DNA from: Solirubrobacter deserti
GTDB taxonomy: Bacteria; Actinomycetota; Thermoleophilia; Solirubrobacterales; Solirubrobacteraceae
Direction of reading: 5' to 3'
Assembly: GCF_027587175.1 (NCBI RefSeq)
Contig: NZ_JAPCID010000064.1
Span: forward strand, 1 to 40,739
Length of the DNA: 40,739 nt
The translations under genes were made by a program, and so were the position numbers. Shown here one piece after another: positions 6,538-29,968 of this stretch (positions are counted from its first letter, which is position 1; every line of letters starts with the position of its first letter). The notes below the pieces were generated by a model. That model saw nothing but the letters and a program-made list of their open reading frames with translations, had not been told where the DNA came from and did not search any database.

Positions 6538-7943
6538 GCACCCGCGATCAGCGGCTCACGCTCACGGCCGCGACGCTCGGCTCGTTCGTCGCACTGCTCG
6601 ACTCGACCGTGGTCGGCGTGGCGCTGCCGGCGATCGGCGCCGACCTCGGCGGCGGGCTCGAGAGCCAGCAGTGGATCGTCAACGCCTACCTGCTCGCGCT
6701 CGGATCGCTGATCCTGATCGGCGGCTCGCTCGGCGACGTGTTCGGCGAGCGGCGCGTCTTCGTGTCGGGCACGGCCGGCTTCGGCATCGCGTCCGCGGCC
6801 TGCGCGGCGGCACCCACCGCCGCGACGCTGATCGCCGCGCGCGGGCTGCAGGGCGTGTTCGCGGCGCTGCTGACACCGGCGTCGCTGGCGGTGATCGTCG
6901 CTGCGTTTGCCCCCGAGGAGCGCGGCCGGGCGATCGGCACGTGGACGGCGTTCAGCGGGATCGCCGCGGTCGTGGGCCCGTTGGCCGGTGGCTGGCTCGT
7001 CGACAGCCTCAGCTGGCGCTGGATCTTCGGCATCGTCCTGCCGTTCGTCGCCCTCACGCTCGTGCTCGCGACCCGGATGCCGGCCCGGGCGCCGGGTGGA
7101 GCGGGCCGCCGTCCCGACTGGCTCGGAGCCGGCCTGTGCGCGTTCGGCCTGGCCGGCGTGTCGTTCGGGCTCGTCCGCCAGCCGGGCCACGGCTGGGCCG
7201 ACGCGCTGGTCACCGGCCCGCTCGTGGCCGGAGCGGTGCTGCTCGCGCTGTTCGTGGCCTGGGAGCGCCGGGGCGCGCGTGACCCGATGCTCCCGCTCGG
7301 CCTATTCCGGCGCCCGAACTTCGCCTGGGGCAACCTCGAGACGTTCTGCGTCTACGGCGCGCTCGGGTTGCTGTTCTTCGTGCTCGTCGTGTTCCTGCAG
7401 CAGGTGGCGGGCTACAGCGCGCTCAAAGCGGGCGCCGCGACCATTCCCACGACGCTCGTGATGCTGCTGTTCTCGCAGCGCTTCGGCGTGCTCGCCGACC
7501 GCTTCGGCCCCCGGCGCTTCATGGCCGCCGGGCCGGTCATCGCCGCCGCCGGCGTGGCCTACCTGCTGGCGGCGGTCGACCGCTCGCCCGACCTGGTCGT
7601 CGACGTGCTCCCCGGGATGACGCTGTTCGCGTTCGGCCTGGCCACGCTCGTGACACCGCTCACGACCGCGGTCCTGGCTGACGCCGACGAGCACAACGCG
7701 GGGATCGCGTCGGGCGTCAACAACGCCGTCGCGCGCGTCGCGGGGCTGCTCGCCACAGCCGCGGTCGGGACGATCGTCGGCGGCACGCTCGACCTCACCG
7801 GGCTGCGGACGGCCCTGGTCGCCGCCGGGGCGCTGCTGCTCCTGGGCGGCCTCACCGGCCTGTGGGGGATCCGCGACCCTACGAGCAGCCCAGCGGCGAC
7901 GGTGCGTCCGGGAGCGCGGTCCGAAGCTCGCGCCGAGTGCTGA
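6534..7943 (+). CDS. DHA2-family MFS drug exporter (EmrB/QacA type)
   Basis: A 469-residue membrane protein starting MSTRDQRLTLTAATLGSFVALLDSTVV. The start of helix 1 (LDSTVVGVALPAI) and the segment SQQWIVNAYLLALGSL are characteristic of the 14-helix DHA2 group. Motif A is GSLGDVFGERRVF (about residues 63-75), and a motif C-like GPLAGGWLVDSLSWRWIF follows near residue 145. These proteins export drugs, dyes or metabolites in exchange for protons across the inner membrane; the substrate cannot be told from sequence. The start was chosen because the frame upstream is not protein-like and the ATG forms an ATGA with a short leader ORF. The last ~20 codons overlap the 3' end of the convergent LAL regulator by 65 bases. 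Confidence 0.92.
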   Translation: MSTRDQRLTLTAATLGSFVALLDSTVVGVALPAIGADLGGGLESQQWIVNAYLLALGSLILIGGSLGDVFGERRVFVSGTAGFGIASAACAAAPTAATLIAARGLQGVFAALLTPASLAVIVAAFAPEERGRAIGTWTAFSGIAAVVGPLAGGWLVDSLSWRWIFGIVLPFVALTLVLATRMPARAPGGAGRRPDWLGAGLCAFGLAGVSFGLVRQPGHGWADALVTGPLVAGAVLLALFVAWERRGARDPMLPLGLFRRPNFAWGNLETFCVYGALGLLFFVLVVFLQQVAGYSALKAGAATIPTTLVMLLFSQRFGVLADRFGPRRFMAAGPVIAAAGVAYLLAAVDRSPDLVVDVLPGMTLFAFGLATLVTPLTTAVLADADEHNAGIASGVNNAVARVAGLLATAAVGTIVGGTLDLTGLRTALVAAGALLLLGGLTGLWGIRDPTSSPAATVRPGARSEARAEC

Positions 7944-10587
7944 CGCCGAGCTTGCGGAAGACCTTGTGCAGGTGGTACTCGACCGTGCGCGGGCTGATGA
8001 ACAGCCGCTCGGCGATCTCCGGATTGGTGTGCCCGTCGCGGGCGAAGCGCGCGATCTGCGCCTCCTGCGGCGTGAGCGCGTCGCGCGTGGCGTCGGTGAG
8101 CCGCGGCGTGCTCTCGCCCGTGGCTCGCAGCTCGCGCCACGCCCGCTCGGCGAACGCCCGCGCGCCGATGCGGGTGAAGCGCTCGTGCGCCCCGCGCAGG
8201 ACCGTGCGGGCGTCCGTGCGCCGCTGCTCGCGTCGGAGCCATTCGCCGTAGAGCAGCTGCGCGCGGGCGAGGTGGACGGCGCCGCGGCTGCGGCCCAGCC
8301 GCTCGATCGCCTCCTGGTGCAGCGGCTCAGGGGCGTCGGCGAGCAGCGCGTGCGCGCTCGCCTCCGCCCCGAGCGCCCACTCGGTCCCGCTCGCCTGGGT
8401 CCGTTCCCGCAGCCGCGCGAACGCGGCGGCCGCCACGTCGCGCTGTCCGACGCGCACCCCGGCCTCGACCAGCTCCACGAGCGCCCACCCGTACGAGATC
8501 ATGTCCTCGTGCTCGCACGCCCGCTGAGCGGCGGCGAGCGCGTCCTCGTAGCGGCCGGCGGCGTTGTGGAGCAGCGCGGTGGCCCAGTGGAACACGCCCA
8601 GTCCCGAGCCCTCGCCGCGCGCCACCGCGTTCTGGACGTTGCGCTCGAGCAGCGCGTGCGTGTGGTCGAGGTCGCCCTGCCACGCGGCCAGCACCAGCGC
8701 GCCGTACCGGACCGGGGCCACGCCCGTCGCGAGCGTGACCGCCTCGATCTCGTCGAGCAGGACGGCGGCGGCGTCGAACGCGCCGGCGTGGACGTGCAGC
8801 GCGGCGCGATGCGTGGCGACGATCGGCAGCGTGCTCAGCGCGCCGCTCTCGCGGGCCTCGCGCACGCCGCGCGTGGCCAGCGCGTGCCAGAGCTCGTCGT
8901 CCCACAGGTCCTGCGCGAGCCGGCACGCGAGCCACAGCCAGCGCCCGTCGTCGAGTCCGCGGAGCGCATCGGGAAGGGCGGGGATCGCGCTCGCGTAGCC
9001 GTCGGCGAAGCGCACGGCCACCGCGGCGAGGAGCGCGTCACGCGGTTGCGTTCCCGGCGGCGCCGTGCGCGCCTCCCGCGCCACGTCCTCGACGCCCGGG
9101 CCCTCGGCCAGCCGGCCCGCGAACACGGCGGCGCTGATCGCCTCCAGGTAGGTCTCGCGCGCCGCGTCCCCGTCCAACGGCGCGAGCCGCCGTGCGGCGT
9201 CGAGCAGGCGGGGCGCGGCGTCGCCGCCCCGCTGCGCGACGAGCGTCAACCGCCCGCGCAGGCGATCGAGCCGCGCGCGCCGAAGCTCGTCCAGCGGCCC
9301 GGTTCGCGCGGCGGCGAGCAGGTCCGCGCACGCGGCGTGGTCGGCCACCAGCAGCTTGGCCTGCGCGGCCTCCAGGGCCCGTTCGGCGCGCAGCCCGGGG
9401 TCGGGCGTGAGCTTGGTCGCCCACTCCAGGAACGCGGCCTTCGCCGCCAGGCCGCCGCGCCCGGCCGCGCGGTCGGCGGAGCGCAGCAGCTCGGCCGCGA
9501 TCGCCTCATCGGGCCGGGCGCTGGCGTGTGCGCGGTGCCACGCGCGCCGATCGGGGTCGGCACCCGGGTTGGTCGCCTCGGCCAGCGCGGCGTGCGCCGC
9601 GCGCCGGTCGGACACGGCCGCCCCGCGGTAGACGGCGGAGCGCACGAGTGGATGCTTGAAGCGCGCCGTCAGGCCGAGCTCGATCAGCCCGGCGGCTTCG
9701 GCGGGACGGCCCGCGTCAGCGCCGACGCCCAGGCGCTCGGCGGCGCGCCACAGCAGGTCGAGGTCGCCGACCGGCTCGGCGGCGGCGAGCAGCAGCAGGC
9801 GCTGCGTGTCGTGCGGGAGCGCCTGCGTGCGCTGCAGGAAGCTGCGCTCGATCCGGTTCGCCAGCGGGCGCGCGTCGGGCAGCGCGAAGCCGCCCGCGAG
9901 CTCGGCCGGCGTGAGGCCGGCGGGCAGCTCCAGCAGCGCGAGCGGGTTGCCGCGCGTCTCGGCGACGATGCGGTCGCGGACGCGTTCGTCGAGCCGCCCG
10001 GGGACCGCGGTCGCCAGCAGGGCACGGGCGTCGTCGGCCGCCAGTCCGTCGATGCGCAACGCCGGCACCCCGGCGAGCACGTCCGCTTCGACCGGCTCGC
10101 GCACGGCGAACACGATCGCGACCCGCTCGGCGAGCAGGCGCCGGGCCACGAACGCCAGGACGAGGGCGGAGGTCTGGTCCAGCCACTGCGCGTCGTCGAC
10201 CACACACACCAGCGGGCGCGCCTCGGCCGTCTCGGCGAGCAGGTTCAGCACCGCCAGCGCCACCAGGAAGCGGTCCGGCGGCTCGCCCGAGCGCAGGCCG
10301 AACGCCACGGACAGGGCCTCCCGCTGCGGGCCGGGCAGCGCTTCCAGGCCGTCGAGCAGCGGGGCGCACAGGTGATGGACGCCCGCGAACGCGAGCTCCA
10401 TCTCGGACTGCACGCCGGTCGCGCGCGCGACGCGGAACCCGGACGCCCGCCCGGCGAGATAGCTCAGCAGCGCCGACTTGCCGACGCCGGACTCGCCACG
10501 CAGCACGAGCGAAGAGCTCTCGCCGCGCCGGATGCGTTCCAGCAGCCCGTCCAGCGCCTCGCATTCGCGACGGCGACCCTGTAGCAC
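7879..10587 (-). CDS. LAL-type LuxR family regulator (AAA ATPase + HTH), copy 1
   Basis: A 902-residue STAND-type transcription regulator. The start is placed at the GTG at 10587 because the family begins about there (LQGRRRECEALDGLL) and a TAAGGT box stands 8 bases upstream. Walker A is GESGVGKSALL (about residues 31-41). Walker B is LVCVVDDAQWLD (about 137-148). A long TPR-like helical middle follows, then a C-terminal LuxR helix-turn-helix: LTPQEAQIARFARDGHTNPE and SPRTVEYHLHKVFRKLGV. LAL regulators bind a ligand and ATP, and activate nearby operons. A close paralogue of the same architecture lies at 12946-15720 on the same strand. The gene is divergent from an ECF sigma factor, with a direct repeat between them, and its 3' end overlaps the MFS gene. 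Confidence 0.92.
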   Translation of the reverse strand: MLQGRRRECEALDGLLERIRRGESSSLVLRGESGVGKSALLSYLAGRASGFRVARATGVQSEMELAFAGVHHLCAPLLDGLEALPGPQREALSVAFGLRSGEPPDRFLVALAVLNLLAETAEARPLVCVVDDAQWLDQTSALVLAFVARRLLAERVAIVFAVREPVEADVLAGVPALRIDGLAADDARALLATAVPGRLDERVRDRIVAETRGNPLALLELPAGLTPAELAGGFALPDARPLANRIERSFLQRTQALPHDTQRLLLLAAAEPVGDLDLLWRAAERLGVGADAGRPAEAAGLIELGLTARFKHPLVRSAVYRGAAVSDRRAAHAALAEATNPGADPDRRAWHRAHASARPDEAIAAELLRSADRAAGRGGLAAKAAFLEWATKLTPDPGLRAERALEAAQAKLLVADHAACADLLAAARTGPLDELRRARLDRLRGRLTLVAQRGGDAAPRLLDAARRLAPLDGDAARETYLEAISAAVFAGRLAEGPGVEDVAREARTAPPGTQPRDALLAAVAVRFADGYASAIPALPDALRGLDDGRWLWLACRLAQDLWDDELWHALATRGVREARESGALSTLPIVATHRAALHVHAGAFDAAAVLLDEIEAVTLATGVAPVRYGALVLAAWQGDLDHTHALLERNVQNAVARGEGSGLGVFHWATALLHNAAGRYEDALAAAQRACEHEDMISYGWALVELVEAGVRVGQRDVAAAAFARLRERTQASGTEWALGAEASAHALLADAPEPLHQEAIERLGRSRGAVHLARAQLLYGEWLRREQRRTDARTVLRGAHERFTRIGARAFAERAWRELRATGESTPRLTDATRDALTPQEAQIARFARDGHTNPEIAERLFISPRTVEYHLHKVFRKLGVSTRRELRTALPDAPSPLGCS

Positions 10588-10595
10588 GAGGGCGC

Positions 10596-10601
10596 ACCTT
10601 A
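10596..10601 (-). promoter_or_regulatory. -10-like box TAAGGT before the GTG of LAL copy 1
   Basis: On the minus strand TAAGGT is followed by eight bases and then GTG. A transcript starting about 7 bases after the box would begin at or next to the start codon, that is, be leaderless or nearly so. Leaderless starts are common in high-GC actinobacteria. No good -35 was identified, and no Shine-Dalgarno sequence is present. Confidence 0.45.
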
Positions 10602-10611
10602 TCGCCGAGTT

Positions 10612-10646
10612 GACTGGGGCCCCGGTCACGCGGACTGGGGCCCGGA
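10612..10646. promoter_or_regulatory. 21-bp-spaced direct repeat, candidate operator between LAL regulator and ECF sigma factor
   Basis: GACTGGGGCCC occurs at 10612-10622 and again at 10633-10643, exactly 21 bases apart, and the bases after each copy stay similar (CGGTCACGCG and GGACGCGGG). Each copy contains a GGGGCCC-type palindromic centre. A 21-base period is two helical turns, so two dimers or domains would bind the same face. It lies 11 bases from the -10-like box of the regulator, consistent with autoregulation or joint control of the divergent sigma factor gene. Confidence 0.5.
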
Positions 10647-10753
10647 CGCGGGTGGGACACGGACGCCCGCACGCCCGCCGCGGAGCAGGCTCGCGGCATG
10701 CCCCGAACCCAGACGCAAACCCCGCTCCGCGCGACGCCGGCCCGGGTGGCGTC

Positions 10754-11362
10754 ATGACCGCCTCCGACGTGGCCTTCGTGCGCGCCCGCCCGCGCCTGGT
10801 CGGCATCGCCCGCCGTGTGCTGGGCAGCGCCGACGACGCCGACGACATCGTTCAGGAGGCGTGGATCCGCTGGCAGGCCGGCGACCGGGCCGAGGTCCGC
10901 GACCCGGCCGCCTTCCTGGCCACGACGACGACCCGGCTGGCGCTCAACGTCGGCCGTTCCGCGCGCGTGCGCCACCAGACCGCCTTCGGCGCGCGTGAGG
11001 CGGACCTCGTCGACCTGGCCGCCGACCCACAGCGCGACGCCGAGCGGCGCGAAGCCCTCGCCCGCGCTCTCTGGACGATCCTCGAGCGCCTGTCGCCGGC
11101 CGAAGGCGCCGTCTACGTCCTGCGCGAGGCGTTCGACTATCCGCACCGCCGGGTCGCGCGGGCGGTCGGCTGCAGCGAGGCCAACGCGCGTCAGCTCGTG
11201 ACGCGGGCCCGCCGGCACCTCGCCGGCGAGCCGCGCTGGACGGTCGATCCCGCCGAGCACGCGGACCTCGTCGAGGCGTTCCTCGCCGCGGCGCGCACGG
11301 GCGACCTGGACCGGCTGGAGCAGCGGCTCGTGGGAGCGACGGATGCACGGCTCGCGGCGTAA
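10754..11362 (+). CDS. ECF sigma factor, SigJ/ECF41-like, lacking the SnoaL-like C-terminal domain
   Basis: A 202-residue protein from the ATG at 10754. The region-2 core is ARPRLVGIARRVLGSADDAD and IVQEAWIRWQ; region 4 is LSPAEGAVYVLREAFDYPH with SEANARQLVTRARRHL, the pattern of the ECF41/SigJ group. In that group a SnoaL-like domain of about 100 residues follows and tunes activity. Here the frame ends after HADLVEAFLAAARTGDLDRLE plus about 15 residues, so only the linker remains. The 3' end overlaps the hydrolase gene by 20 bases, which implies co-translation. ECF41 genes usually sit beside an oxidoreductase or decarboxylase target; here the hydrolase takes that position. It was probably truncated when the two genes were joined. 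Confidence 0.85.
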   Translation: MTASDVAFVRARPRLVGIARRVLGSADDADDIVQEAWIRWQAGDRAEVRDPAAFLATTTTRLALNVGRSARVRHQTAFGAREADLVDLAADPQRDAERREALARALWTILERLSPAEGAVYVLREAFDYPHRRVARAVGCSEANARQLVTRARRHLAGEPRWTVDPAEHADLVEAFLAAARTGDLDRLEQRLVGATDARLAA

Positions 11363-12266
11363 CGGTCTTCCCGCCGCGTTCGGCGGCTTCGAGGCGCACC
11401 GGCTCACGACCAGGCGCGGCACGATCAACGCCGTGGTCGGCGGCAGCGGACCGCCGCTGCTGCTGTTGCACGGCTATCCCCAGTCGCTGCTGATGTGGCA
11501 CGCCACCGCGCCGCGTTTGGCCCGCCGCCACACGGTCGTCGTCACCGACATGGCCGGCTACGGCGACTCCTTCCGTCCGGCGCCGTCCTTCGGCCACGAG
11601 GCCCACAGCAAACGTGCGCTCGCGCTCGACCAGGTGGAGGTGATGGACCGGCTCGGGTTCGACACCTTCGCCGTCGCCGGGCACGACCGCGGCGGGCGCG
11701 TCGCCTACCGGATGGCGCTCGACCACCCCGGCCACGTGAGCCGGCTTGCGGTGCTCGACATCGTCCCCACGGGCGACGTCTGGGCCCGCGCCGACGCCGC
11801 GCTCGCCCGCGGCTACTGGCACTGGTCCTTCCTCGCGCTCCCCGCGCCGCTGCCCGAGCGGCTGATCGCGGGGGACCCCGACGCGTTCTTCGACCTCCAC
11901 GTCCGCGGCCAGCTCGGCTTGGGCGAGGACCCTGAGCGCTACCCACTCGAGCTCCTGGACGCCTACCGCCGCCCGCTCACGGACCCCGGCGCCGTCGAGG
12001 CCATGTGCGAGGACTATCGCGCCGGCGCGACGATCGATGTAGAACACGACGAGCTCGACCGCGCCGAGGGCCGCCGCATCGCCTGCCCGCTGCTCGTGCT
12101 GTGGGCGGCGCACGGCAGCCTCCCGCGCTTCTACGGCGATCCGCTCGACGTCTGGCGGCCGTGGGCCGCGGACGTCCGCGGCGCCGCCGTCGACGCCAGC
12201 CACTTCATGGCCGAGGATCGCCCGGAGGAGACGGCCGGCCACCTGCTGGCGTTCCTGGGCGCGTGA
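11343..12266 (+). CDS. Alpha/beta hydrolase of the fluoroacetate/haloacetate dehalogenase type
   Basis: A 307-residue alpha/beta-hydrolase that closely follows the fluoroacetate dehalogenase pattern as I remember it from the Rhodopseudomonas enzyme. It has the oxyanion/HG loop LLLLHGYPQ (39-47); nucleophile D115 in AGHDRGGR, with R116 and R119 as carboxylate binders; acid D139 in AVLDIVPT; H160-W161 in YWHW and Y225 in CEDYRAG as halide-binding residues; and base H287 in DASHFMAED. The full halide pocket is kept, so hydrolytic removal of halogen from a haloacetate-like acid is the best guess; epoxide or ester substrates remain possible. The start at 11343 lies inside the end of the ECF sigma gene and matches the usual N-terminus. 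There is no signal peptide, so it should be cytoplasmic. Confidence 0.88.
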   Translation: MHGSRRNGLPAAFGGFEAHRLTTRRGTINAVVGGSGPPLLLLHGYPQSLLMWHATAPRLARRHTVVVTDMAGYGDSFRPAPSFGHEAHSKRALALDQVEVMDRLGFDTFAVAGHDRGGRVAYRMALDHPGHVSRLAVLDIVPTGDVWARADAALARGYWHWSFLALPAPLPERLIAGDPDAFFDLHVRGQLGLGEDPERYPLELLDAYRRPLTDPGAVEAMCEDYRAGATIDVEHDELDRAEGRRIACPLLVLWAAHGSLPRFYGDPLDVWRPWAADVRGAAVDASHFMAEDRPEETAGHLLAFLGA

Positions 12267-12277
12267 GCGCCAGGGAA

Positions 12278-12886
12278 TCAGGCCCAGCCCGCGGGTGGCA
12301 GCTTGGCCCGCAGCCCGGGCTTGACCCCCGTGCTGACGTAGGCCGTGACGGCGCCGACGAGCTCGCAGAACGCCGCCGGCCGCGCCGCGCTGGAGAACAG
12401 CGTGCGGCACTGCAGCCACGTCGCGAACTCCGACTGCAGGTCGAACCCCAGCCCGAGCGCGGCGTGGCCGAACACGTCGTGGAGGGCACGCAGCTCGTCG
12501 AACGCGCCGAAGAGCGGGTGCGGCTCGTCGCGCGTGAGCGTCAGCAGGCCGTGGTCGCGCACGTCGGAGCACAGCTCGGCCGCGCTCACGCCCGGGTCCG
12601 CGTCGACGTGCACGACGCGGACGCCGAGGTTGCGCACCAGCGCAAACAGCCGCCGGGTGTCGCGTTCGAGCGCCCGGTAGGCGTGGGCGACCGCCTCCAC
12701 GGGCGGTGCGGGCGCGGTCAGGAACCAGTCGGTCACGCGCGCGGCGTGCTCCGGCTCCAGCTGGCCGGTGGTGCGCAGCACGTGCGGCGACGGCGGCAGC
12801 TCGTACGCGTGCTGGTCGACGACGAGCTGGGCGCGCCGCCAGGTCGGGAACACCTCGGACGGCCGGAGAATCTCGAGCGTGGTCAT
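12278..12886 (-). CDS. Uncharacterised protein with an HDVFGH motif
   Basis: A 202-residue soluble protein starting MTTLEILRPSEVFPTWRRAQ at the ATG at 12886. The central segment ELRALHDVFGHAALGLGFDL followed by SEFATWLQ contains two histidines five apart and a nearby glutamate, a likely metal site. The motif recalls the iron-binding HELLGH/HDxFGH of aromatic amino-acid hydroxylases, and also phage-encoded HDxFGH proteins I remember without an assigned function; spacing to the third ligand does not fit the hydroxylases well. I do not assign a function. It lies 59 bases downstream of LAL copy 2 on the same strand, so it may be the last gene of that transcript and a target of the regulator. Confidence 0.75.
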   Translation of the reverse strand: MTTLEILRPSEVFPTWRRAQLVVDQHAYELPPSPHVLRTTGQLEPEHAARVTDWFLTAPAPPVEAVAHAYRALERDTRRLFALVRNLGVRVVHVDADPGVSAAELCSDVRDHGLLTLTRDEPHPLFGAFDELRALHDVFGHAALGLGFDLQSEFATWLQCRTLFSSAARPAAFCELVGAVTAYVSTGVKPGLRAKLPPAGWA

Positions 12887-22288: not shown

Positions 22289-24265
22289 GTGCCGCACCGC
22301 GCGCTCATCATCGGGAACTGGGAGTACGCGGACCCGACCGGCGTGTACGCCCCGTTGAACGGGCCGCGCCATGACGTGCGGTTGATGCAGGAGGCGCTCG
22401 AGGACCCGAAGTTCGGACTGTGCGAAGAGATTCAGGTCCTCTGCAACGCCACCTGGAACGAGTTGCAGACGTCGATCGCCGAGTTCATCGATCACAACGG
22501 CCCCGACGATCACATGGTCCTCTACTACTCGGGCCACGGCGCGCGAATCGAGGAGGGACGGTTGGCGCTCTGCGGCGTCGACACGCCGAGCCAGCAGGAG
22601 TCCTATCGCGGGTTCGACACCGCGAAGCTGCGTGAGTGGCTGCAGGTCCGCAACCGCGCGCGCTCCACGGTGGTGGTGCTTGACTGCTGCTACGCGGGCG
22701 CGTACAAGAGCGCCACGCTCGAGATCAGCGACTCGCTCGGCGCCGGAACGGGCGTCCTCGCCAGCGGCGGCAACCAGCCCGCCAAGGACTCCCAGGACGT
22801 CAACGAGCCGAGCCCGTTCACAGCGGCGCTCGCCTCGATCCTCCTCGACCCCGAGGTACCCGGCCGTCCCGACGATGGCATGGTCACGCTCGAGACCGTC
22901 TACACGCGGCTGCTCGAGCATCAGCCGCGGCTGGACCCGCTCCCACAGCGCAACGTCAGGAGTCAGGGGTCCCTGCCGCTGGCGAAACGCGAGATCCCGA
23001 GCCGCGTCTCCCGTCCTGAGCTCGTGGACTACGAGGAGCCGAGGATCGACCCCATCACGCTGCGGTTCGACCGTGCCTCCGTCGTCGCTCAATCGAGCGC
23101 CGGCGAGCCGGAATCAATCGATCTGTCGGGACGCGACGACCACCAGTGGTCGGCGGTCCGGCGGATGAGCCAGCTCGCGGACGCGGTCGTGCGTGTGCCT
23201 GACTACGACAGCGACCGGTGGGCTCAGCGAGCGGTCCGGCGCGCCTGGAACTGCGTCGGCAGCACGCTCTTCGAGCGAGCGCTTCCGCCGGGCGTGCAGG
23301 AGCGGATCCGCGCGCTCGACGAGACCGAGGCCAGCCGCAGCCTGTTGAAGCTGCGGCTGCACTTCGGCGACGGTCGGGACGAGAGTGGAATGCAGCGGTA
23401 TCCGTGGGAGTACCTGTATCACCAGCCAGATCCGGGCTACGACGACGACATCCGCCCCGAACCGCAGCCCATGGCGCTGCAGCCGGGGTTGCTGGTGGAG
23501 CGGGTGATCGTCGGGACCCCGCCGTCGGAGATCAAGAGCCCGGTCGCCGTCGGCCTGGTCAACTCGCAACGCGGTCAGCTCGGGGATGCCGCGGGTCGGG
23601 TCGCGGACGGCTTGACGCAGATGGTCGGGCTGAACGTCGTCTTCGACGCGCGCGCGGAGGACGCGCAGTGGGGACGCGTCCTGGATTCCCTCGGCGCGCA
23701 ACGGCCGAAGCTGCTGTTGATGTGCCTGCCCGTCCGACGCCGGCCCGGCGGCGTGGAGGTGGCGTTCTGGCCCGAGCGCGAAGACGCCCCCGACTGGCGG
23801 CGCGTGCAGGACCTGATCGTCCAGTTGCGGCGCCGCAACCTCAAGTTCGACCTGATCTTCTTCAGCGCCTTCGCGGCGCGGCCGTCCACGGACTCCTACC
23901 GCGCCACGAACGAGGTGGCGGGCGAGTTGGCCCGGGCGGGGCTCGGACCGGTCATCTTCGTCTGCCACTCGGCCGCGCACGCCCGGCTCGTGCCCCCGCT
24001 CGGCAAGGACACTTTCACGCTGCTGCTGATGGACGCGGTCACCCAGGGCAAGCGGCTCGACTACGCGGTCTACTACGCCAAGGACCGCGTCGCGAGCCGC
24101 GTGGGCGAGGAGTCGCGCCGAACCTTCGGGGTCCCCGGCTACTACGTGATCGAGGACGCCAACGCGCAGGCCGAGCCCGAGCCGGAGTTCGAGTCCGAGC
24201 CGCGAACCGCTGGTCGCAGGACCGTGGGCCGGGCGGGCCCGCTGCGACGTGAGGTCAAACCGTGA
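22289..24265 (+). CDS. Caspase-like peptidase (C14) fused to a degenerate CHAT-like domain
   Basis: A 658-residue protein starting with GTG. The N-terminal ~230 residues are a caspase/metacaspase domain: first strand HRALIIGNWEYAD, catalytic H83 in VLYYSGHGA, and catalytic C134 in VVVLDCCYAGAY, both present, so proteolysis is expected. After a linker (about 231-300), residues 300-625 resemble a CHAT domain: the entry YPWEYLYHQPDPGYDDD with LQPGLLVERVIVG, and a core around DLIFFSAFAARPS and GLGPVIFVCHSAAHA. The CHAT His is not found, and the usual Ser-Ala-Cys reads SAF (F527 region), so this second domain looks catalytically dead and may bind a partner. An acidic tail follows (EPEPEFESEP). Start six bases after the EACC1-like gene and a GTGA overlap with the next gene show a tight operon. 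Confidence 0.87.
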   Translation: MPHRALIIGNWEYADPTGVYAPLNGPRHDVRLMQEALEDPKFGLCEEIQVLCNATWNELQTSIAEFIDHNGPDDHMVLYYSGHGARIEEGRLALCGVDTPSQQESYRGFDTAKLREWLQVRNRARSTVVVLDCCYAGAYKSATLEISDSLGAGTGVLASGGNQPAKDSQDVNEPSPFTAALASILLDPEVPGRPDDGMVTLETVYTRLLEHQPRLDPLPQRNVRSQGSLPLAKREIPSRVSRPELVDYEEPRIDPITLRFDRASVVAQSSAGEPESIDLSGRDDHQWSAVRRMSQLADAVVRVPDYDSDRWAQRAVRRAWNCVGSTLFERALPPGVQERIRALDETEASRSLLKLRLHFGDGRDESGMQRYPWEYLYHQPDPGYDDDIRPEPQPMALQPGLLVERVIVGTPPSEIKSPVAVGLVNSQRGQLGDAAGRVADGLTQMVGLNVVFDARAEDAQWGRVLDSLGAQRPKLLLMCLPVRRRPGGVEVAFWPEREDAPDWRRVQDLIVQLRRRNLKFDLIFFSAFAARPSTDSYRATNEVAGELARAGLGPVIFVCHSAAHARLVPPLGKDTFTLLLMDAVTQGKRLDYAVYYAKDRVASRVGEESRRTFGVPGYYVIEDANAQAEPEPEFESEPRTAGRRTVGRAGPLRREVKP

Positions 24266-26676
24266 GCGCTCGACTCAGCGTGCGCGCCGCGCGTGTCGAG
24301 CTCGCGCTGGCCCTCGCGGACCAGGAAGGCCGTCTCGACGACGCCATCGCCGAGCTCGGCCGGGCGCTCGAGGACCCCGGCGAGGACACGCTCCGCTGGC
24401 AGGTGCACTGGCACCTCGCGCTGCTGAGCGCGCGCGCGAACCGCCGCCCCGACGCCGCGTTCGGCCAGGCGTTCGCCGCCGCGCTCGCCGCTCCACCGGA
24501 CGAAGCGGAGGAACCGGCCGAGTTTGCGCTCGATCTGCTCCGCGGCGGCAGTGTGCGGCGAGCGGTCACGCAGATCGACGACGCCACGATCGACCGGCTC
24601 GTCGAACGGGCGCTCACGCTGGACGGCGGCTCCGTGCTGCTGATGCTGGCGGGCCACATCCTGATGCTGCGCGGTGACGCCCACAAGGCGGGACGCCTGT
24701 TCGACGCCGCGCCGGACACGGGCGGCACGGCGGATGCGGCCCGCGCGGTCGCGGACGCGCTGACGGCAATTGACGACGGCGGCTTCGACGCCGCGCTCGA
24801 CGCGCTGGCCGGGCTCGACGACGACGTGCCGGGCGTCGCGGCGGCCCGCGCGCTCGCGCTGTACGGCGGCGGACGCTTGGAGGAAGCCCTGGCGTGCACG
24901 CGGCGGGAGGGCGGCATGATCGACACCGCGATGGCTGAGACGGTGATCTGGCTTCGGGTTGCCGTCGCGCACGATCAAGCCACCGACGCGCTCACTCAGG
25001 CCGAACGGTCGGCGAGCGTCGCCGCTCGGCTGGATCCGTCGCAGCCCGAGGCGCTGCTGCTGCGCGCCCAGGTCGAGTTCGAGCTCGGGCGGGACCTCAG
25101 CAGCGCTCGCGACCTGCTCCATCACGCGCTCGACGGCCTCGAAGCCACGCCGGAGCGTTCGCGGTACTGGCGGCTCCAGCAGCACGTCCGAACCGACGGC
25201 CGGTTCCGCTACGTGACGCTCGAGGTGTCAGCGGCCTGCAACCGCACTGACGGGTTGCTCATGCTGAGCCCAGCGGACCTGCCGCTCGCGGACACGTCCG
25301 CGCTCCAGAACGCCGCGGCGGCGGAGCTCGCAGCCGAGGCGCAACGCTCCGTGGATCGCGTCGAGCAGGCGGCTGACCTCTACGAAAGAGCGCAGTTCTT
25401 CGCCTCCGAGAGCGAGGACCTCAGCGGGGCACTGGCTGCTCAGGAGGCCGCGCAGCGGTTGCGGCCCTCCGTGGGCGGGCTGATCCGGCTCGCCGAAGCG
25501 TGGTGGAGCGAATCCTTCAGTGCCCCGGAGACGGCCCTCGACCGGGCCGTCGCCAACGGGCTCGCGGCGTTGGACCGGATCGGGTCCGACGGGCTCCGTG
25601 TGGCCCCAAGTCAGTGCGTCGAGTCGGGGTACATGCGCGGACTGCTGCTCGCGCGGCGTGCCGCGACGGACATCAAGCCGGTGCCGGAGCGATGGGCGCC
25701 GTTGCCGTGGCTGCTGGCGGCGGCGTTGTACGACGCCGGCGATCCGTACCGCGCGGCGCATCTCGCGTGGGGATGCGACACGGCCGCGCTCTCCGGACCC
25801 GCGTGCACGCTCGCGGCGCGCGCGCTCGCCGAGGCCGAAGCCGACCCGTGGCTGCAGGAAACGTACGTGGTCATGCGCATGAACTGGTACGGCGTGCTGG
25901 ACGAGCGCAGCGAGCAGGTGATCGACTCGGTGGGGGACCCCTCCTGGGCGGCGACCGTGCGCGCCGCCGACGCTCTGCACCGTGGCGACCACGCCCGCCT
26001 GCGCGAGCTGCTCGCAGACCAGATGAGCCCGGATTCGCGCTGGGCGCGAGAGCTCGTCGCCCAGTGCACGGCGATTGCCTACGGCATGGAGCGCGCGCGG
26101 CCGTTGTACGAAGCGGTCCTGGAGGAGGCGAGCACCGAGCCCGTCCGGCACCGGATGGCCTCAGATTGTGCGTTGATGCTCGGTGACCCGGCCCGCGCGC
26201 GCCGGCACCTCGCCGCTGCGAGGGAGACGGGCGTGTTGGCACCGCCGGAGCTCCGTCGCGGCGAGGTCATCGTCGACTTGGCCACCGGCGGCCGTGCGCC
26301 CTCGGACGCCGCGGTCCGTGAGGCGTTAGCCACGATCGTCCGGCCGTACATGCATCGCGAGTGGACACGCGGGTGGTTGCCGGCGCTGGCGCTCGCCTAC
26401 GAGTCCGCGCCGCACGCGGCGCGCGCCTTCGAGGCGCTGCGCGGCGAGCTGCTCGCGCGCCCGGAGGCGGGCCCGCCGGTGTCTATGACTGTCGATATCG
26501 ACGTTGGCCGCGAGACGTCCACTGTCCCCGATCTCGACGGGCTTGTCCGCCTCCTCCTCGGGCTCGTCGACGAGGGCGAACCGGCCGCCCATGGCGGACA
26601 GGGCGTGCTGCGTCAGGCGATCGCAGACGCCCCACCCGACCTGCGCCCCGTCCTGGCGGCCGCCCTCCACACCTGA
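24262..26676 (+). CDS. TPR-like helical-repeat protein of the caspase operon
   Basis: An 804-residue, almost entirely alpha-helical soluble protein beginning at the GTG of a GTGA overlap. Repeated helix pairs with alanine-rich packing fit TPR or TPR-like repeats (for example VELALALADQEGRLDDAIAE, AALDALAGLDDDVPGVAAAR, AERSASVAARLDPSQPEALL, ALAAQEAAQRLRPSVGG and CALMLGDPARARRHLAAA). No enzymatic motif or membrane segment is visible. The last ~60 residues (after SMTVDIDVGRETSTVPD) form a separate piece. CHAT and caspase domains are often fused to TPRs; here the TPR part is a separate chain. It could be the scaffold, the regulator or the cleaved target of the caspase; the sequence does not decide. 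TPR assignment is by pattern, not by profile search. Confidence 0.8.
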   Translation: MSARLSVRAARVELALALADQEGRLDDAIAELGRALEDPGEDTLRWQVHWHLALLSARANRRPDAAFGQAFAAALAAPPDEAEEPAEFALDLLRGGSVRRAVTQIDDATIDRLVERALTLDGGSVLLMLAGHILMLRGDAHKAGRLFDAAPDTGGTADAARAVADALTAIDDGGFDAALDALAGLDDDVPGVAAARALALYGGGRLEEALACTRREGGMIDTAMAETVIWLRVAVAHDQATDALTQAERSASVAARLDPSQPEALLLRAQVEFELGRDLSSARDLLHHALDGLEATPERSRYWRLQQHVRTDGRFRYVTLEVSAACNRTDGLLMLSPADLPLADTSALQNAAAAELAAEAQRSVDRVEQAADLYERAQFFASESEDLSGALAAQEAAQRLRPSVGGLIRLAEAWWSESFSAPETALDRAVANGLAALDRIGSDGLRVAPSQCVESGYMRGLLLARRAATDIKPVPERWAPLPWLLAAALYDAGDPYRAAHLAWGCDTAALSGPACTLAARALAEAEADPWLQETYVVMRMNWYGVLDERSEQVIDSVGDPSWAATVRAADALHRGDHARLRELLADQMSPDSRWARELVAQCTAIAYGMERARPLYEAVLEEASTEPVRHRMASDCALMLGDPARARRHLAAARETGVLAPPELRRGEVIVDLATGGRAPSDAAVREALATIVRPYMHREWTRGWLPALALAYESAPHAARAFEALRGELLARPEAGPPVSMTVDIDVGRETSTVPDLDGLVRLLLGLVDEGEPAAHGGQGVLRQAIADAPPDLRPVLAAALHT

Positions 26677-26712: not shown

Positions 26713-27708
26713 GTGCCCGAGTACCGCATGCCGCCCGAGTGGGCGCCCCACCAGCGCACCTGGATGGCGTGGCCGTCGTCCGGCTACACGCTCGGCGAGC
26801 AGCCGGACGAGGCTCGCGCCACGTGGGCGGCGGTCGCGCGCGCGGTCGTCGAGTTCGAGCCGGTGTCGATGGTCGTCGACCCGGATGCGACCGACGAGGC
26901 CGCGCGCTCCCTCGATCCCCGCGTCGAGGTTGTCGAGGCGCCGCTCAACGACGCCTGGATGCGCGACATCGGGCCGACGTTCGTCCTCGACGGCAACGCG
27001 CCGGCCGCGGTCGACTGGGTGTTCAACGGCTGGGGTGGGCAGCAGTGGGCGCAGTGGGACAAGGACGCCAACGTCGCCCGCTTCGTGGCCGAGCAGGCCG
27101 GCGTGCCCGTCGTCAGCTCCCCGCTCGTCAACGAGGGCGGCGGCATCCACGTCGACGGCGAGGGCACCGTGCTCGTCACCCGCACGGTGCAGCTCGATCC
27201 CGGGCGCAATCCGGACTGGGATCAGGCCCGGGTGGAGGCGGAGCTGCGGCGCACGCTCGGGGCCGAGCGCATCATCTGGCTCGAGCGCGGCCTCACGCGC
27301 GACTACGACGAGTTCGGCACGCGCGGCCACGTGGACATCGTCGCGACGTTCTGCGCGCCCGGCACCGTGCTCGCGCACCGCCAGGACGACCCGGAACATC
27401 CCGACCATGACGTCTCGCGCACGATCGTCGAGCTGCTGCGCGAGGCAGGACTGACGGTGGTCGAGGTCCCCGCGCCGCGCGCCACCCACGACGAGCACGG
27501 GCCGGTGGACTACAGCTACATCAACCACTACGTCGTCAACGGCGGCGTGATCCTGTGCGGCTTCGGGGAGCCGGAGGCCGACGCGCGCGCCGCCGCGATC
27601 ATGGCCGACGCCTACCCGGGCCGGCGCGTCGAGCTCGTCGACGCGCGCCCGCTGTTCGCCCGCGGCGGCGGCATCCACTGCATCACGCAACAACAACCGG
27701 CGGCCTAG
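26713..27708 (+). CDS. aguA: Agmatine deiminase / peptidylarginine-deiminase family protein
   Basis: A 331-residue guanidine-modifying enzyme, hydrolysing agmatine to N-carbamoylputrescine and ammonia in known members. Family motifs are all present: N-terminal MPPEWAPHQRTWMAWPSS, NDAWMRDIGPTFV, NEGGGIHVDGEGTVLVT, the catalytic His region FGTRGHVDIVATF, and nucleophile C323 in GGGIHCITQQ. It starts with GTG and is slightly shorter than typical AguA (about 340-370 residues). Its stop codon directly abuts the ATG of the urease gamma/beta gene, so it is the first gene of a three-gene unit with the urease-like subunits. This linkage suggests that the product, or another ureido compound, feeds the urease-like enzyme. 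Another guanidino substrate is possible. Confidence 0.9.
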   Translation: MPEYRMPPEWAPHQRTWMAWPSSGYTLGEQPDEARATWAAVARAVVEFEPVSMVVDPDATDEAARSLDPRVEVVEAPLNDAWMRDIGPTFVLDGNAPAAVDWVFNGWGGQQWAQWDKDANVARFVAEQAGVPVVSSPLVNEGGGIHVDGEGTVLVTRTVQLDPGRNPDWDQARVEAELRRTLGAERIIWLERGLTRDYDEFGTRGHVDIVATFCAPGTVLAHRQDDPEHPDHDVSRTIVELLREAGLTVVEVPAPRATHDEHGPVDYSYINHYVVNGGVILCGFGEPEADARAAAIMADAYPGRRVELVDARPLFARGGGIHCITQQQPAA

Positions 27709-28368
27709 ATGCATCTGCTGCCCAGCGAAGAGAGCCGGTTGCTGCTGTACCTGGCCGCCGAGCTGGCTCGCAAGCGCCGCGCGCGCGGGCTGGAGCTCAC
27801 GCAGGCCGAGGCGGTGGCGCTGATCGCCGACGAGGTGTGCGAGGCCGCGCGCGACGGGCGCTCCTACGCCGACGTCGAGGCGTTCGGCTACACGGTGCTC
27901 GGGCCGGCCGACGTGCTCGACGGCGTGGCCGATGCGATCCCGCGCGTGGAGGTCGAGCCGCTGTTCGAGGACGGGCACCGGCTCGTCGTCTTGCACGACC
28001 CGATCCGCCGCGGCGCGCCGCCGGAGCCCGTGGCGGTGGAGCCGGAGTGGCTGGCGGAGGGCTTGGCGCTCGAGGTCGTCAACGAGGGCGAGGTGCCGGT
28101 CGGCGTCACCTCGCACTTCCACTTCTTCGAGACCAACCGCGTCCTGCGCTTCGACCGCGCCGCCGCCTACGGCCACCGGCTCGCGATCGCCCCCGGCGCC
28201 AAGGTCGTGTTCAACCCGGGCGAGCCGCTCACCGTGCGGCTCGTCCCGATCGCCGGCGCGCGCGTCGTCCGCGGCCACGGCGGCCTGGTGGACGGGCCGC
28301 TGGACGACCCGGGCGCGCGGGACGCGGCGCTCCAGCTCGCGCGGGAACGGGGGTACCGCGGTGCCTGA
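27709..28368 (+). CDS. ureAB: Urease gamma/beta subunit fusion
   Basis: A 219-residue fusion. Residues 1-100 correspond to urease gamma (MHLLPSEESRLLLYLAAELA, ELTQAEAVALIADEVCEAAR and GYTVLGPADVLDGVADAI), and residues about 101-219 to beta (VEVEPLFEDGHRLVVLHDPI, EVVNEGEVPVGVTSHFHFFETN, RFDRAAAYGHRLAIAPG). Gamma and beta are separate in most bacteria and fused in Helicobacter UreA and in some actinobacterial second urease clusters. ATG follows the deiminase stop without a gap, and the stop overlaps the alpha-subunit GTG by eight bases. The fold is well conserved, so an assembled alpha/gamma-beta complex is likely in the cytoplasm. Confidence 0.92.
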   Translation: MHLLPSEESRLLLYLAAELARKRRARGLELTQAEAVALIADEVCEAARDGRSYADVEAFGYTVLGPADVLDGVADAIPRVEVEPLFEDGHRLVVLHDPIRRGAPPEPVAVEPEWLAEGLALEVVNEGEVPVGVTSHFHFFETNRVLRFDRAAAYGHRLAIAPGAKVVFNPGEPLTVRLVPIAGARVVRGHGGLVDGPLDDPGARDAALQLARERGYRGA

Positions 28369-29968
28369 GCGCGTGCGGCTGGCCGACAGCGACCTGTGGC
28401 TCGAGCCCGAGGGCGAGCCGGACGCGATCGTCCCCGGATGGGGCGGCACGATGCGCGACGGGCTGTCCGCGCGCGCCGAGCGCGGCGGGGTGGAGGTCGC
28501 GATCACGGGCGGTCTCGTGATCGACCCCGTGCTTGGGGTGCGGTTCGCCAGCCTGGGCGTGAGCGGGGGCCGGATCGTGAGCGTCGGCCGGGCCGGCAAC
28601 CCGGACACCGAGGACGGCATCGACGTGGTGCTCGACACCGCGACCGCCGTCCACGACGCGAGCGGGCTGATCGTCACGCCCGGCGGCATCGACACGCACG
28701 TGCACTGGCTCTCGCCGCAGGTCGCGAACGCCGCGCTCGCGGGCGGGCTCACGACGCTCGTCATCCAGGACCCCGGCCCGGTCTGGAACCTCGGCTGCAA
28801 CCCACCCGAGCTGCTGCACGCCGCCTGGGCCGCGCTCGACGCCTACCCGCTCAATGCCGCCCTGCTCGTGCGCGGCTCCTCCGCCCGCCAGGACCCGATC
28901 CTGCACTCGCTGCGCGCGGGCGGCGCCGGGCTGAAGATCCACGAGGACGTCGCCGCCGGGCCGGAGCAGATCCGGACGGCGCTCGACGTCTGCGACGCCG
29001 AGGACGTCCAGCTCGCCATCCACACCGACGGGCTCAACGAGGCGCTGTCGGTCGAGGACACCTACCGCGCGTTCGGCGGCCGGACGATCCACGCCTTTCA
29101 CATCGAGGGCTGCGGCGGCGGCCACGCGCCCGACCTGCTCGCGCTCGCGGGCCGCGAGCGCGTGCTCACGTCCTCCACCAACCCGGGGCTGCCGTTCGGC
29201 GCGGGCACCGAGGCCGAGGGCCGCGCGATGGTCGAGGCCGTGCACCTGCTGCAACCGGGCAGGCGCAGCGGCGACCTCGCGATCCTCGACCTGCGCGTCC
29301 GCGCCCGCACGATGGCCGCCGAGGGCGTCCTGCACGACCTCGGCGTCATCCACATGATGTCCTCGGACTCGCAGGGCATGGGCCGTGCGGGCGAGGTCGT
29401 CCGCCGCGCGTTCCAGAACGCGGATTGGATGAAGGTCGTCCGCGGCGGCGAGGGCGCGCACGACAACGCGCGCGTGTTGCGCCACATCGCGAAGGTCACG
29501 ATCAACCCGGCGCTCACGCACGGGCTCGCAGGCCACGTCGGCGCGCTCACCCCGGGCCGGCTCGCGGACGCCGTGCTCTGGCAGCCCACACTGTTCGGCG
29601 TGCGGCCGGAGCTGGTGCTCAAGGCCGGGATGGCCGCGTGGGGCGCGTCCGGCGACGGCAACGCGACCACGATGTTGGCCGAGCCCGTGCGCGTCCAGCC
29701 GCAGGTCGGCGGGATCGGCGGCGCGCCCGCCCGCACCTCGCTCGCGTTCCTGGCCGGCTGCGCGATGGACGCCGAGCTCCCGACCGTCCGCGAGCGCGCC
29801 CGCGTCGAGGGCTGCCGCGACCTGACCGCCGCCGACATGCTCCACAACGACCGCCGCGGCGACGTCCGCGTCGACCCGCGGACGTCCGCGGTCACGCTCG
29901 ACGGCGAGCCGGTCGAGGCGCCGCCGGTCGAGCGCCTCGCCTTCTCCGGCCGCTTCCTGCTCGGCTGA
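28361..29968 (+). CDS. ureC: Divergent urease alpha subunit with altered catalytic flap
   Basis: A 535-residue nickel-amidohydrolase subunit, shorter than typical alpha subunits (about 567-573) because the first ~25 residues are missing. Metal ligands are kept: H113 and H115 (GGIDTHVHW), carbamylated lysine K192 with H194 and D196 (LKIHEDV), H221 (AIHTDGLNE), H247 (AFHIEGCGGGHAPD) and D336 (SSDSQGMGR). The flap that normally reads CHHLD reads VHLLQ (294-298). In an ungapped alignment, Klebsiella C319 and H320 become H295 and L296; a one-residue shift would instead align H295 with the general-acid His. R339 appears replaced by A315. No ureD, E, F or G genes are in the window. The fold and metals fit a urease; the flap suggests altered substrate or rate. 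Confidence 0.88.
   Translation: MPERVRLADSDLWLEPEGEPDAIVPGWGGTMRDGLSARAERGGVEVAITGGLVIDPVLGVRFASLGVSGGRIVSVGRAGNPDTEDGIDVVLDTATAVHDASGLIVTPGGIDTHVHWLSPQVANAALAGGLTTLVIQDPGPVWNLGCNPPELLHAAWAALDAYPLNAALLVRGSSARQDPILHSLRAGGAGLKIHEDVAAGPEQIRTALDVCDAEDVQLAIHTDGLNEALSVEDTYRAFGGRTIHAFHIEGCGGGHAPDLLALAGRERVLTSSTNPGLPFGAGTEAEGRAMVEAVHLLQPGRRSGDLAILDLRVRARTMAAEGVLHDLGVIHMMSSDSQGMGRAGEVVRRAFQNADWMKVVRGGEGAHDNARVLRHIAKVTINPALTHGLAGHVGALTPGRLADAVLWQPTLFGVRPELVLKAGMAAWGASGDGNATTMLAEPVRVQPQVGGIGGAPARTSLAFLAGCAMDAELPTVRERARVEGCRDLTAADMLHNDRRGDVRVDPRTSAVTLDGEPVEAPPVERLAFSGRFLLG

What the first reader, a model, noticed from the sequence alone, without database searches (positions are those of the whole stretch)
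26713..29968. Agmatine deiminase linked to a urease with a rebuilt flap and no accessory genes
Seen: three genes with no gaps; all nickel ligands kept; CHHLD flap replaced by VHLLQ, a changed Arg, and a shortened N-terminus. Known: the flap His is the general acid of urea hydrolysis, and carbamoylputrescine, the deiminase product, is itself a substituted urea. Inference: this enzyme may hydrolyse N-carbamoylputrescine or another ureido compound, replacing the usual amidase AguB, and may borrow its metallocentre machinery from another urease locus or need none.
Basis: partly seen in the sequence, partly recalled or inferred. Interest (0 to 1): 0.72.

Follow-up and report, generated by a model that had tools for sequence, protein, structure and literature searches.

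The report
Urease relative paired with agmatine deiminase
Next to an agmatine-deiminase-type gene this soil bacterium carries a urease-like enzyme that keeps the urease chemistry but has a re-cut substrate pocket and lives without the usual urease helper genes; it probably splits the deiminase's product (a urea with a tail, such as N-carbamoylputrescine) rather than urea, and it belongs to an overlooked branch of the urease family.

Summary
The trio is real: AguA-like (26713-27708), fused UreAB (27709-28368), UreC-like (28361-29968), in Solirubrobacter. The key observation is partly wrong: VHLLQ aligns without a shift to CHHLD, so the flap histidine (His320) and Arg336 are kept; Cys319 is lost. 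The real changes are a shortened Ala167 loop, Ala363Gly, Thr249Gly and Cys319Val: all four in 29 of 29 evaluable core, Streptomyces-type and f16 rows, none of 63 ordinary ones (recounted in 110).

UreG has no match above cut-off in 16 of 26 tested genomes with this enzyme; the other 10 also hold an ordinary-type urease. The window's genome shows no UreD, UreF, UreG or second urease alpha. AguA is present in 15 of 23 sampled genomes with the enzyme (34 of 373 others), within 750 nt in 12. AguAs of the window's subfamily elsewhere sit beside an AguB-like nitrilase or an amidase.

Best reading: a urease-fold hydrolase of AguA's ureido product (most likely N-carbamoylputrescine), matured without UreDFG. 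Substrate and metal are inferred. Against: 8 of 12 f16-branch genomes lack AguA; AguB absence is not significant against other AguA genomes. New variant of a known kind.

The parts
26713..27708 (+). Agmatine-deiminase-type guanidino hydrolase (AguA-like, PF04371), 331 aa; catalytic Cys motif GGGIHCITQQQP; GTRGHVDI where the solved agmatine deiminases shown have TNGH[I/V]D
   Evidence: (TIGR03380 278 bits, below cut-off 381.8)
27709..28368 (+). Fused urease gamma/beta subunit (UreAB), 219 aa
   Evidence: PRK13192 264 bits, cut-off 243
28361..29968 (+). Urease alpha-like catalytic subunit (called UreC2 here), 535 aa, GTG start overlapping UreAB by 8 nt
28763..28804 (+). Shortened Ala167 loop (residues 135-148, IQDPGPVWNLGCNP; 4 residues fewer than K. 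aerogenes urease)
28934..28936 (+). Lys192 = metal-bridging carbamylated Lys217, kept
29030..29032 (+). Gly224 = Thr249 of K. aerogenes urease, changed in core, Streptomyces-type and f16 rows
29240..29245 (+). Val294-His295 of the flap = Cys319-His320: Cys lost, catalytic His kept
29294..29296 (+). Arg312 = catalytic Arg336, kept
29375..29377 (+). Gly339 = Ala363 of the urea pocket, changed

Best explanation
AguA and UreAB-UreC2 form a two-step module. AguA removes the imino group of a guanidino amine, most likely agmatine, giving ammonia and a mono-substituted urea, most likely N-carbamoylputrescine. UreABC2 then hydrolyses that substituted urea by the urease mechanism (binuclear metal bridged by a carbamylated lysine, metal-bound water, flap His320, His219 and Arg336) to amine (putrescine), CO2 and a second ammonia, the role of AguB in Pseudomonas. 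In urease the Ala167 loop and Ala363 close round the second NH2 of urea (recalled); here the loop is cut by four residues, Ala363 is Gly and neighbours are changed, which would make room for the tail of a substituted urea. The metal centre is assembled without UreD, UreF and UreG. Shown: gene order, conserved catalytic residues, lineage-wide pocket changes, no detectable UreD, UreF or UreG in this genome, linkage to AguA. Inferred: substrate, extra room in the pocket, products, metal, how the metal centre matures.
For: Catalytic and metal residues kept in 10/10 core, 9/9 Streptomyces-type and 5/5 plasmid rows; f16 rows keep them where covered, except Arg336 to Leu in the two pieces of one genome. 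All four pocket changes (loop gap, C319V, A363G, T249G) in 10/10 core, 9/9 Streptomyces-type and 10/10 evaluable of 12 f16 rows, 0/63 ordinary. The branch of 32 tree rows is separated from 61 others with SH-aLRT 100. AguA present in 15/23 sampled genomes with the enzyme against 34/373 others (Fisher p 7e-10; genomes are related, so not a true probability) and 6/46 other urease genomes; gap 46-749 nt in 12 of those 15, none of the 6 others adjacent; no AguA hit at 13/13 ordinary urease loci in stretches of 15-19 kb. AguA tree: the label 'UreC2-linked' needs 4 changes, 3 forced by supported branches (gains and losses cannot be told apart), and one UreC2 clade (core) is paired with three AguA lineages, so re-pairing happened. 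Partner exchange: in 38 AguA genomes without UreC2, 5 have an AguB above cut-off, each next to AguA, and at least 7 more have a sub-cut-off AguB-like gene next to it. In the window's own AguA subfamily the neighbour is an AguB-like CN-hydrolase in L145, L153 and L204, an amidase in L155; L204 (Tsukamurella) also carries primary-amine oxidase and aminobutyraldehyde dehydrogenase, the putrescine-to-GABA route. Three genomes of one f16 genus have a polyamine-type ABC transporter downstream of UreAB-UreC2 (families run on one of the three). UreG: none above cut-off in 16/26 tested UreC2 genomes; present in the other 10, which also have an ordinary-type urease, and in 10/10 ordinary-urease control genomes. 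Model: urease fold, pLDDT 84.8, TM 0.94 to K. aerogenes urease.
Against: In the f16 sub-branch 8 of 12 genomes have no AguA at E<=1e-30; G273 has the enzyme without an adjacent AguA (its AguA is on another contig). Plasmid relatives of the same branch sit in NRPS clusters without AguA and have only two of the four pocket changes (L133 three), so the branch is not bound to one substrate. AguB absence does not separate trio genomes from other AguA genomes (0/16 v 5/38 above cut-off, p 0.31), and the 8 Streptomyces-type genomes carry AguB-like matches of 255-262 bits away from AguA that could do the step; in the window's genome the best is 113 bits. Within the window's AguA subfamily L151, L156 and L205 show no hydrolase next to AguA in the gene lists I saw, in L206 the amidase is three genes away, and L139 ends at a contig edge. 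The window's AguA is below the agmatine-deiminase equivalog cut-off (278 v 381.8) and has Arg where the solved enzymes shown have Asn before Gly-His; but an AguA beside a true AguB also scores only 285. All residues needed to hydrolyse urea itself are kept. The genome is 97.3% complete, so a missing ure cluster is not strictly excluded. No pocket volume was computed.
Confidence: 0.57

Rival explanations
1. It is an ordinary urea-hydrolysing urease with drifted residues; AguA sits beside it because both release ammonia from arginine-derived compounds.
For: All catalytic residues and the fold are kept; NCBIfam models name it urease; PMC3293853 (section 13 read) lists S. coelicolor SCO5525-5526 among the urea-utilising genes, without an enzyme test in that section.
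Against: The four pocket changes occur together in 29/29 evaluable core, Streptomyces-type and f16 rows and in 0/63 ordinary ones, so not drift; no UreG above cut-off in 16/26 genomes; 7 of 8 Streptomyces-type genomes keep it beside an ordinary urease without stops; AguA linkage was seen only in this branch.
Confidence: 0.17
2. Same chemistry, other substrate: the AguA of this subfamily deiminates a guanidino acid such as 4-guanidinobutyrate, and UreABC2 hydrolyses the ureido acid to GABA.
For: Arg, Gln or Leu (Asn in L155, L156) before Gly-His in AguA of this subfamily; NCS1-type permeases near several of them; succinate-semialdehyde-dehydrogenase-like gene in L153.
Against: L204 carries amine oxidase and aminobutyraldehyde dehydrogenase, which act on putrescine and its product; other UreC2-linked AguAs (L029, L048, L089, L146, L147) have Asp there; polyamine-type transporter beside an f16 enzyme.
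Confidence: 0.15
3. It needs UreDFG, supplied by genes missed in the assembly or by distant homologues.
For: The window's genome is 97.3% complete in 129 contigs; 10/26 genomes with the enzyme also have UreG.
Against: G000, G001, G034 and G263, of two families, have no UreD, no UreF and no UreG above cut-off and 11/11 tested f16/f47 genomes have no UreG match, while 10/10 ordinary-urease controls have it; G226 keeps the trio although its ordinary urease is broken and it has no UreF and no UreG above cut-off.
Confidence: 0.07
4. Non-catalytic or decaying remnant.
For: Only the lost Cys319 and the loop deletion could suggest loss of function.
Against: 92-93% identity of UreC2 between Solirubrobacter species, above that of AguA (78-82%); catalytic residues conserved; no stop inside the UreC2 matches.
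Confidence: 0.03

Closest known systems
Nickel urease (UreABC; K. aerogenes, S. pasteurii)
   Same: Fold (TM 0.94), all metal ligands, His219, His320, Arg336, Asp221, UreABC composition
   Different: Ala167 loop shortened by 4, C319V, A363G, T249G; gamma and beta fused; no UreD, UreF or UreG found; linked to AguA
AguA-AguB agmatine pathway (Pseudomonas; PMC9397018, passages seen)
   Same: AguA-type deiminase with a hydrolase for its ureido product; same expected net reaction
   Different: The second enzyme is a urease-fold metalloenzyme, not a nitrilase-type amidase
Iron urease UreA2B2 of Helicobacter (3qga; PMC11541087 and PMC6247508, passages seen)
   Same: Second urease outside the accessory gene cluster; shows that the fold can use another metal
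   Different: Described as a urease; not placed in my tree; its independence from accessory proteins is recalled, not read here
Putrescine transcarbamylase route (Enterococcus; PMC9397018, passage)
   Same: Removes the carbamoyl group of N-carbamoylputrescine after AguA
   Different: Phosphorolysis by a transcarbamylase, not hydrolysis
S. coelicolor SCO5525-5527 (PMC3293853, section 13)
   Same: ureABC (SCO5525-5526) next in number to the AguA homologue SCO5527; probably the Streptomyces-type trio seen here (inference)
   Different: Described as urea-utilising and as an unlinked ADC-pathway homologue; its sequence was not compared here

Membership tests
Urease (UreABC fold family) | Urease alpha fold with fused or separate gamma and beta | tested here: met
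Urease (UreABC fold family) | Metal ligands His134, His136, Lys217, His246, His272, Asp360 | tested here: met
Urease (UreABC fold family) | Catalytic His219, His320, Arg336, Asp221 | tested here: met
   the flap His is in register
Ordinary nickel urease | Ala167 loop, Cys319, Ala363 of the urea pocket | tested here: not met
Ordinary nickel urease | Accessory genes UreD, UreF, UreG in the genome | tested here: not met
Ordinary nickel urease | Score above TIGR01792 urease alpha equivalog cut-off | tested here: not met
   482.6 v 680 bits (subfamily model PRK13207 is passed: 562.8 v 354)
Ordinary nickel urease | Nickel content and urea hydrolysis | not testable with these tools
   needs purified enzyme
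Agmatine deiminase (AguA) | PF04371 full length with catalytic Cys | tested here: met
Agmatine deiminase (AguA) | Score above TIGR03380 equivalog cut-off | tested here: not met
   278 v 381.8; the other AguAs tried, one beside a true AguB included, also fall below
Agmatine deiminase (AguA) | Asn/Asp before Gly-His (Asn in the four solved chains shown, of 11 matched) | tested here: not met
   Arg in the window; the role of the position is not known here
N-carbamoylputrescine amidase (AguB) | CN_hydrolase (nitrilase) fold | tested here: not met
   same expected role, different fold
Iron urease UreA2B2 | Iron in the active site | not testable with these tools
   metal unknown

The most novel reading that the evidence does not exclude
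A separate branch of the urease family has become an accessory-independent hydrolase of substituted ureas: in Solirubrobacter and Streptomyces-type actinomycetes a urease-fold N-carbamoylputrescine hydrolase in the role of AguB, in Streptomycetaceae plasmids a tailoring enzyme of NRPS clusters, perhaps with a metal other than nickel.
Probability: 0.48. Interest if true: 0.82.

Novelty: new variant of a known kind. Interest (0 to 1): 0.68.

Why it matters
Urease is taken as an enzyme for urea, kept selective by a tight pocket and dependent on a dedicated nickel delivery machine. A sister branch that keeps the chemistry, re-cuts the pocket and occurs in genomes without detectable UreG would show how selectivity and accessory dependence are built, would add a possible missing step to agmatine and polyamine breakdown in actinomycetes, and would mean that some 'urease' annotations (perhaps the second urease of Streptomyces) are wrong as to substrate. 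It also offers a natural test of what UreDFG are for.

Tried and rejected
Rejected: loss of the flap histidine (alignments put His295 on His320). Rejected: AguA linkage as chance or as a general feature of ureases (13/13 ordinary loci without AguA; Fisher tests). Not supported: a second urease with its own accessory genes in this genome. Considered and left open: which guanidino compound AguA uses. Rows dropped: L043, L044, L045 and L079 duplicate the window, L027, L026 and L046; L047 and L049 are short contigs and were not counted for AguA adjacency; L043, L049, L073, L147, L161, L162 and L184 were left out of the UreC tree.
Full report
Where it is. The window is contig C86 of a 7.09 Mb, 97.3% complete genome; the trio is 100% identical to that of Solirubrobacter sp. 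CPCC 204708 (L043). An AguA-like gene (26713-27708), a fused urease gamma/beta gene (27709-28368) and a urease alpha-like gene (28361-29968) follow each other without gaps; UreC overlaps UreAB by 8 nt. Pfam and NCBIfam confirm the families. I call the alpha subunit UreC2.

The flap. The finding rests on CHHLD being replaced by VHLLQ. In pairwise and multiple alignments the two align without a shift: Val294 = Cys319, His295 = His320. His320 is the general acid (recalled), so it is kept; Arg312 = Arg336 is kept as well. His320 is present in 10/10 core rows, 9/9 Streptomyces-type rows, 12/12 f16 rows, 5/5 plasmid rows and 63/63 ordinary rows. Structures of K. aerogenes C319A, C319S, C319D, C319Y and H320N variants are among the fold matches, which fixes the numbering.

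What did change. The core, Streptomyces-type and f16 rows share a deletion of at least four residues in the loop that carries Ala167, Cys319 to Val, Ala363 to Gly and Thr249 to Gly: all four in 29 of 29 rows that cover all four places (10 core, 9 Streptomyces-type, 10 of 12 f16), in 0 of 63 ordinary rows (Cys319Val alone in 3, Ala363Gly with a 3-residue gap in 2) and in 0 of 5 plasmid rows of the same branch, which have the loop gap and Cys319Val (L133 also Ala363Gly). The Ala167 and Ala363 carbonyls hold the urea NH2 groups in ureases (recalled), so these changes fall where a tail on the urea would have to lie; that they enlarge the pocket is inferred. A quick maximum-likelihood tree of 93 rows separates 32 rows (9 core, 9 Streptomyces-type, 9 f16, 4 NRPS-cluster, L133) from 61 others with SH-aLRT 100 (the program warns that L133 and the f16 rows have long branches that may join falsely). 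The AlphaFold model (pLDDT 84.8, 30 rows) has the urease fold (TM 0.94).

Accessory genes. UreF, UreD and UreG give no match in the window's genome. Among 26 genomes with UreC2 that were tested, UreG passes the cut-off in 10, all of which also hold an ordinary-type urease, and does not in 16: G000, G001, G034, G263, G226 and 11/11 tested f16/f47 genomes. G034 and G226 have only weak matches of 23-27 bits. Ten of ten control genomes with ordinary ureases have UreG. UreD and UreF were tested only in the first 16 genomes (one of which, G005, has no UreC2); G226 has a sub-cut-off UreD piece beside a broken ordinary urease. Several of the 11 tested f16/f47 genomes are incomplete (81-98%); G330 was recognised too late to be tested.

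AguA. In an even sample of 396 genomes of the phylum, 23 have UreC2 and 15 of these have AguA, against 34 of 373 others (Fisher p 7e-10, ignoring relatedness) and 6 of 46 other urease genomes. For core plus Streptomyces-type it is 11/11; for f16/f47 4/12, which counts against a fixed link. AguA lies 46-749 nt from UreC2 in 12 of the 15 (UreAB may lie between), on another contig in 3; in the six other cases it is never near. Orders differ: AguA-UreAB-UreC (Solirubrobacter, G067), UreAB-UreC-AguA (Streptomyces-type, G263), divergent (G034, L048, G279). In the AguA tree of 41 rows the UreC2-linked members fall in several places: 4 changes of the label, 3 forced by supported branches; the program notes that three changes may be one gain and two losses. 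Since the single core UreC2 clade is paired with three AguA lineages (window type, L029/L048 type, L080), partners have been exchanged.

What stands in for UreC2. In 38 AguA genomes without UreC2, five have an AguB above the cut-off, each next to AguA, and at least seven more have a sub-cut-off AguB-like gene next to it (G047, G129, G044, G400, G375 from coordinates; G068, G351, which looked at 15 of the 38). In the 16-genome set no AguB passes the cut-off, but 0/16 against 5/38 is no significant difference (p 0.31), and Streptomyces-type genomes have AguB-like matches of 255-262 bits elsewhere. A tblastn with one AguB found none at 13 UreC2 loci. In the window's own supported AguA subfamily the neighbour is an AguB-like CN-hydrolase (L145, L153) or an amidase (L155); L151 and L156 show no hydrolase next to AguA, L139 ends at a contig edge. 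Plasmid members placed by identity (57-63%) and the GTRGHVD motif, not by tree: L204 with a nitrilase, primary-amine oxidase and aminobutyraldehyde dehydrogenase; L206 with TetR, NCS1 permease and, three genes away, an amidase; L205 with none of these. Three f16 loci (L199-L201, one genus) have a PotA/PotD/PotB-like transporter after UreC2 (family search on L199 only: PotA subfamily 357.9 v 355.6 bits; PotB and PotD models below their equivalog cut-offs). Together this points to N-carbamoylputrescine, the product of agmatine deiminase, which AguB hydrolyses to putrescine in Pseudomonas (PMC9397018, passages).

Doubts about the substrate. The window's AguA lies below the agmatine-deiminase equivalog cut-off and has Arg before Gly-His where the four solved chains shown (of 11 matched) have Asn. 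Other UreC2-linked AguAs keep Asp (L080 Asn). A guanidino acid as substrate of this subfamily is therefore a live rival. Urea hydrolysis is not excluded either, since every catalytic residue is present.

Other branches. Plasmid relatives from Streptomyces anulatus, Streptomyces sp., Embleya and Kitasatospora (48-50% identical) sit, where annotated (three of four), after NRPS genes, a phosphotransferase and an unannotated protein, and before a 2OG-Fe(II)-oxygenase-like gene. A fifth, L133, is followed by an amidohydrolase and a transporter.

Literature. The listings showed no paper that describes the module or this branch; the library holds open-licence papers only, and of the listed papers I opened PMC3293853, PMC9397018, PMC11541087, PMC6247508 and PMC6429109 alone. 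PMC3293853 (section 13 read) names S. coelicolor SCO5525-5526 as ureABC and SCO5527 as an agmatine-pathway homologue without joining them. Iron urease UreA2B2 (PMC11541087, PMC6247508, passages) shows that the fold can use another metal.

Verdict.

Noticed in passing
L128-L132 (plasmids NZ_CP109401.1, NZ_CP108786.1, NZ_CP109047.1, NZ_CP109408.1): UreAB-UreC relatives inside NRPS gene clusters of Streptomycetaceae plasmids, beside a 2OG-oxygenase-like gene, phosphotransferases and a 528-aa protein without Pfam match that holds a Cys-rich GRGCVKF...CSFC motif; possible tailoring enzymes for a ureido group.
   Followed up: partly
L133 (NZ_CP108854.1), 7372-12703: A further diverged UreAB-UreC followed by an Amidohydro_3 enzyme and a metabolite/H+ symporter; possibly another substrate.
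   Followed up: partly
L066 (G133), L168 (G273): Ureases outside the UreC2 branch with a 3-residue gap in the Ala167 loop and Ala363Gly but with Cys319 kept; apparently an independent pocket change.
   Followed up: no
L062 (G124), L063 (G428), L073 (G353): Ureases with Cys319 to Val but an otherwise ordinary loop.
   Followed up: no
L029 (G034), about 8830-8990: UreC2 of G034 carries a tandem-repeat insertion (about three copies of a 17-residue unit) near residue 40; frame open.
   Followed up: no
G226:C1:445167-448899: Ordinary urease locus broken (one TAG, pieces) with a sub-cut-off UreD piece, while the UreC2 trio is intact.
   Followed up: partly
L089 (G403:C19:612410-629093): Four AguA-family genes within 17 kb round a second UreAB-UreC2 copy.
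   Followed up: no
window 22289-26676: Caspase-domain (Peptidase_C14) protein followed by an 804-aa protein without Pfam match just upstream of the trio.
   Followed up: no
L161, L162 (G143): f16-type UreC2 with Leu at the catalytic Arg336 position, the only such case among the 99 census rows.
   Followed up: no
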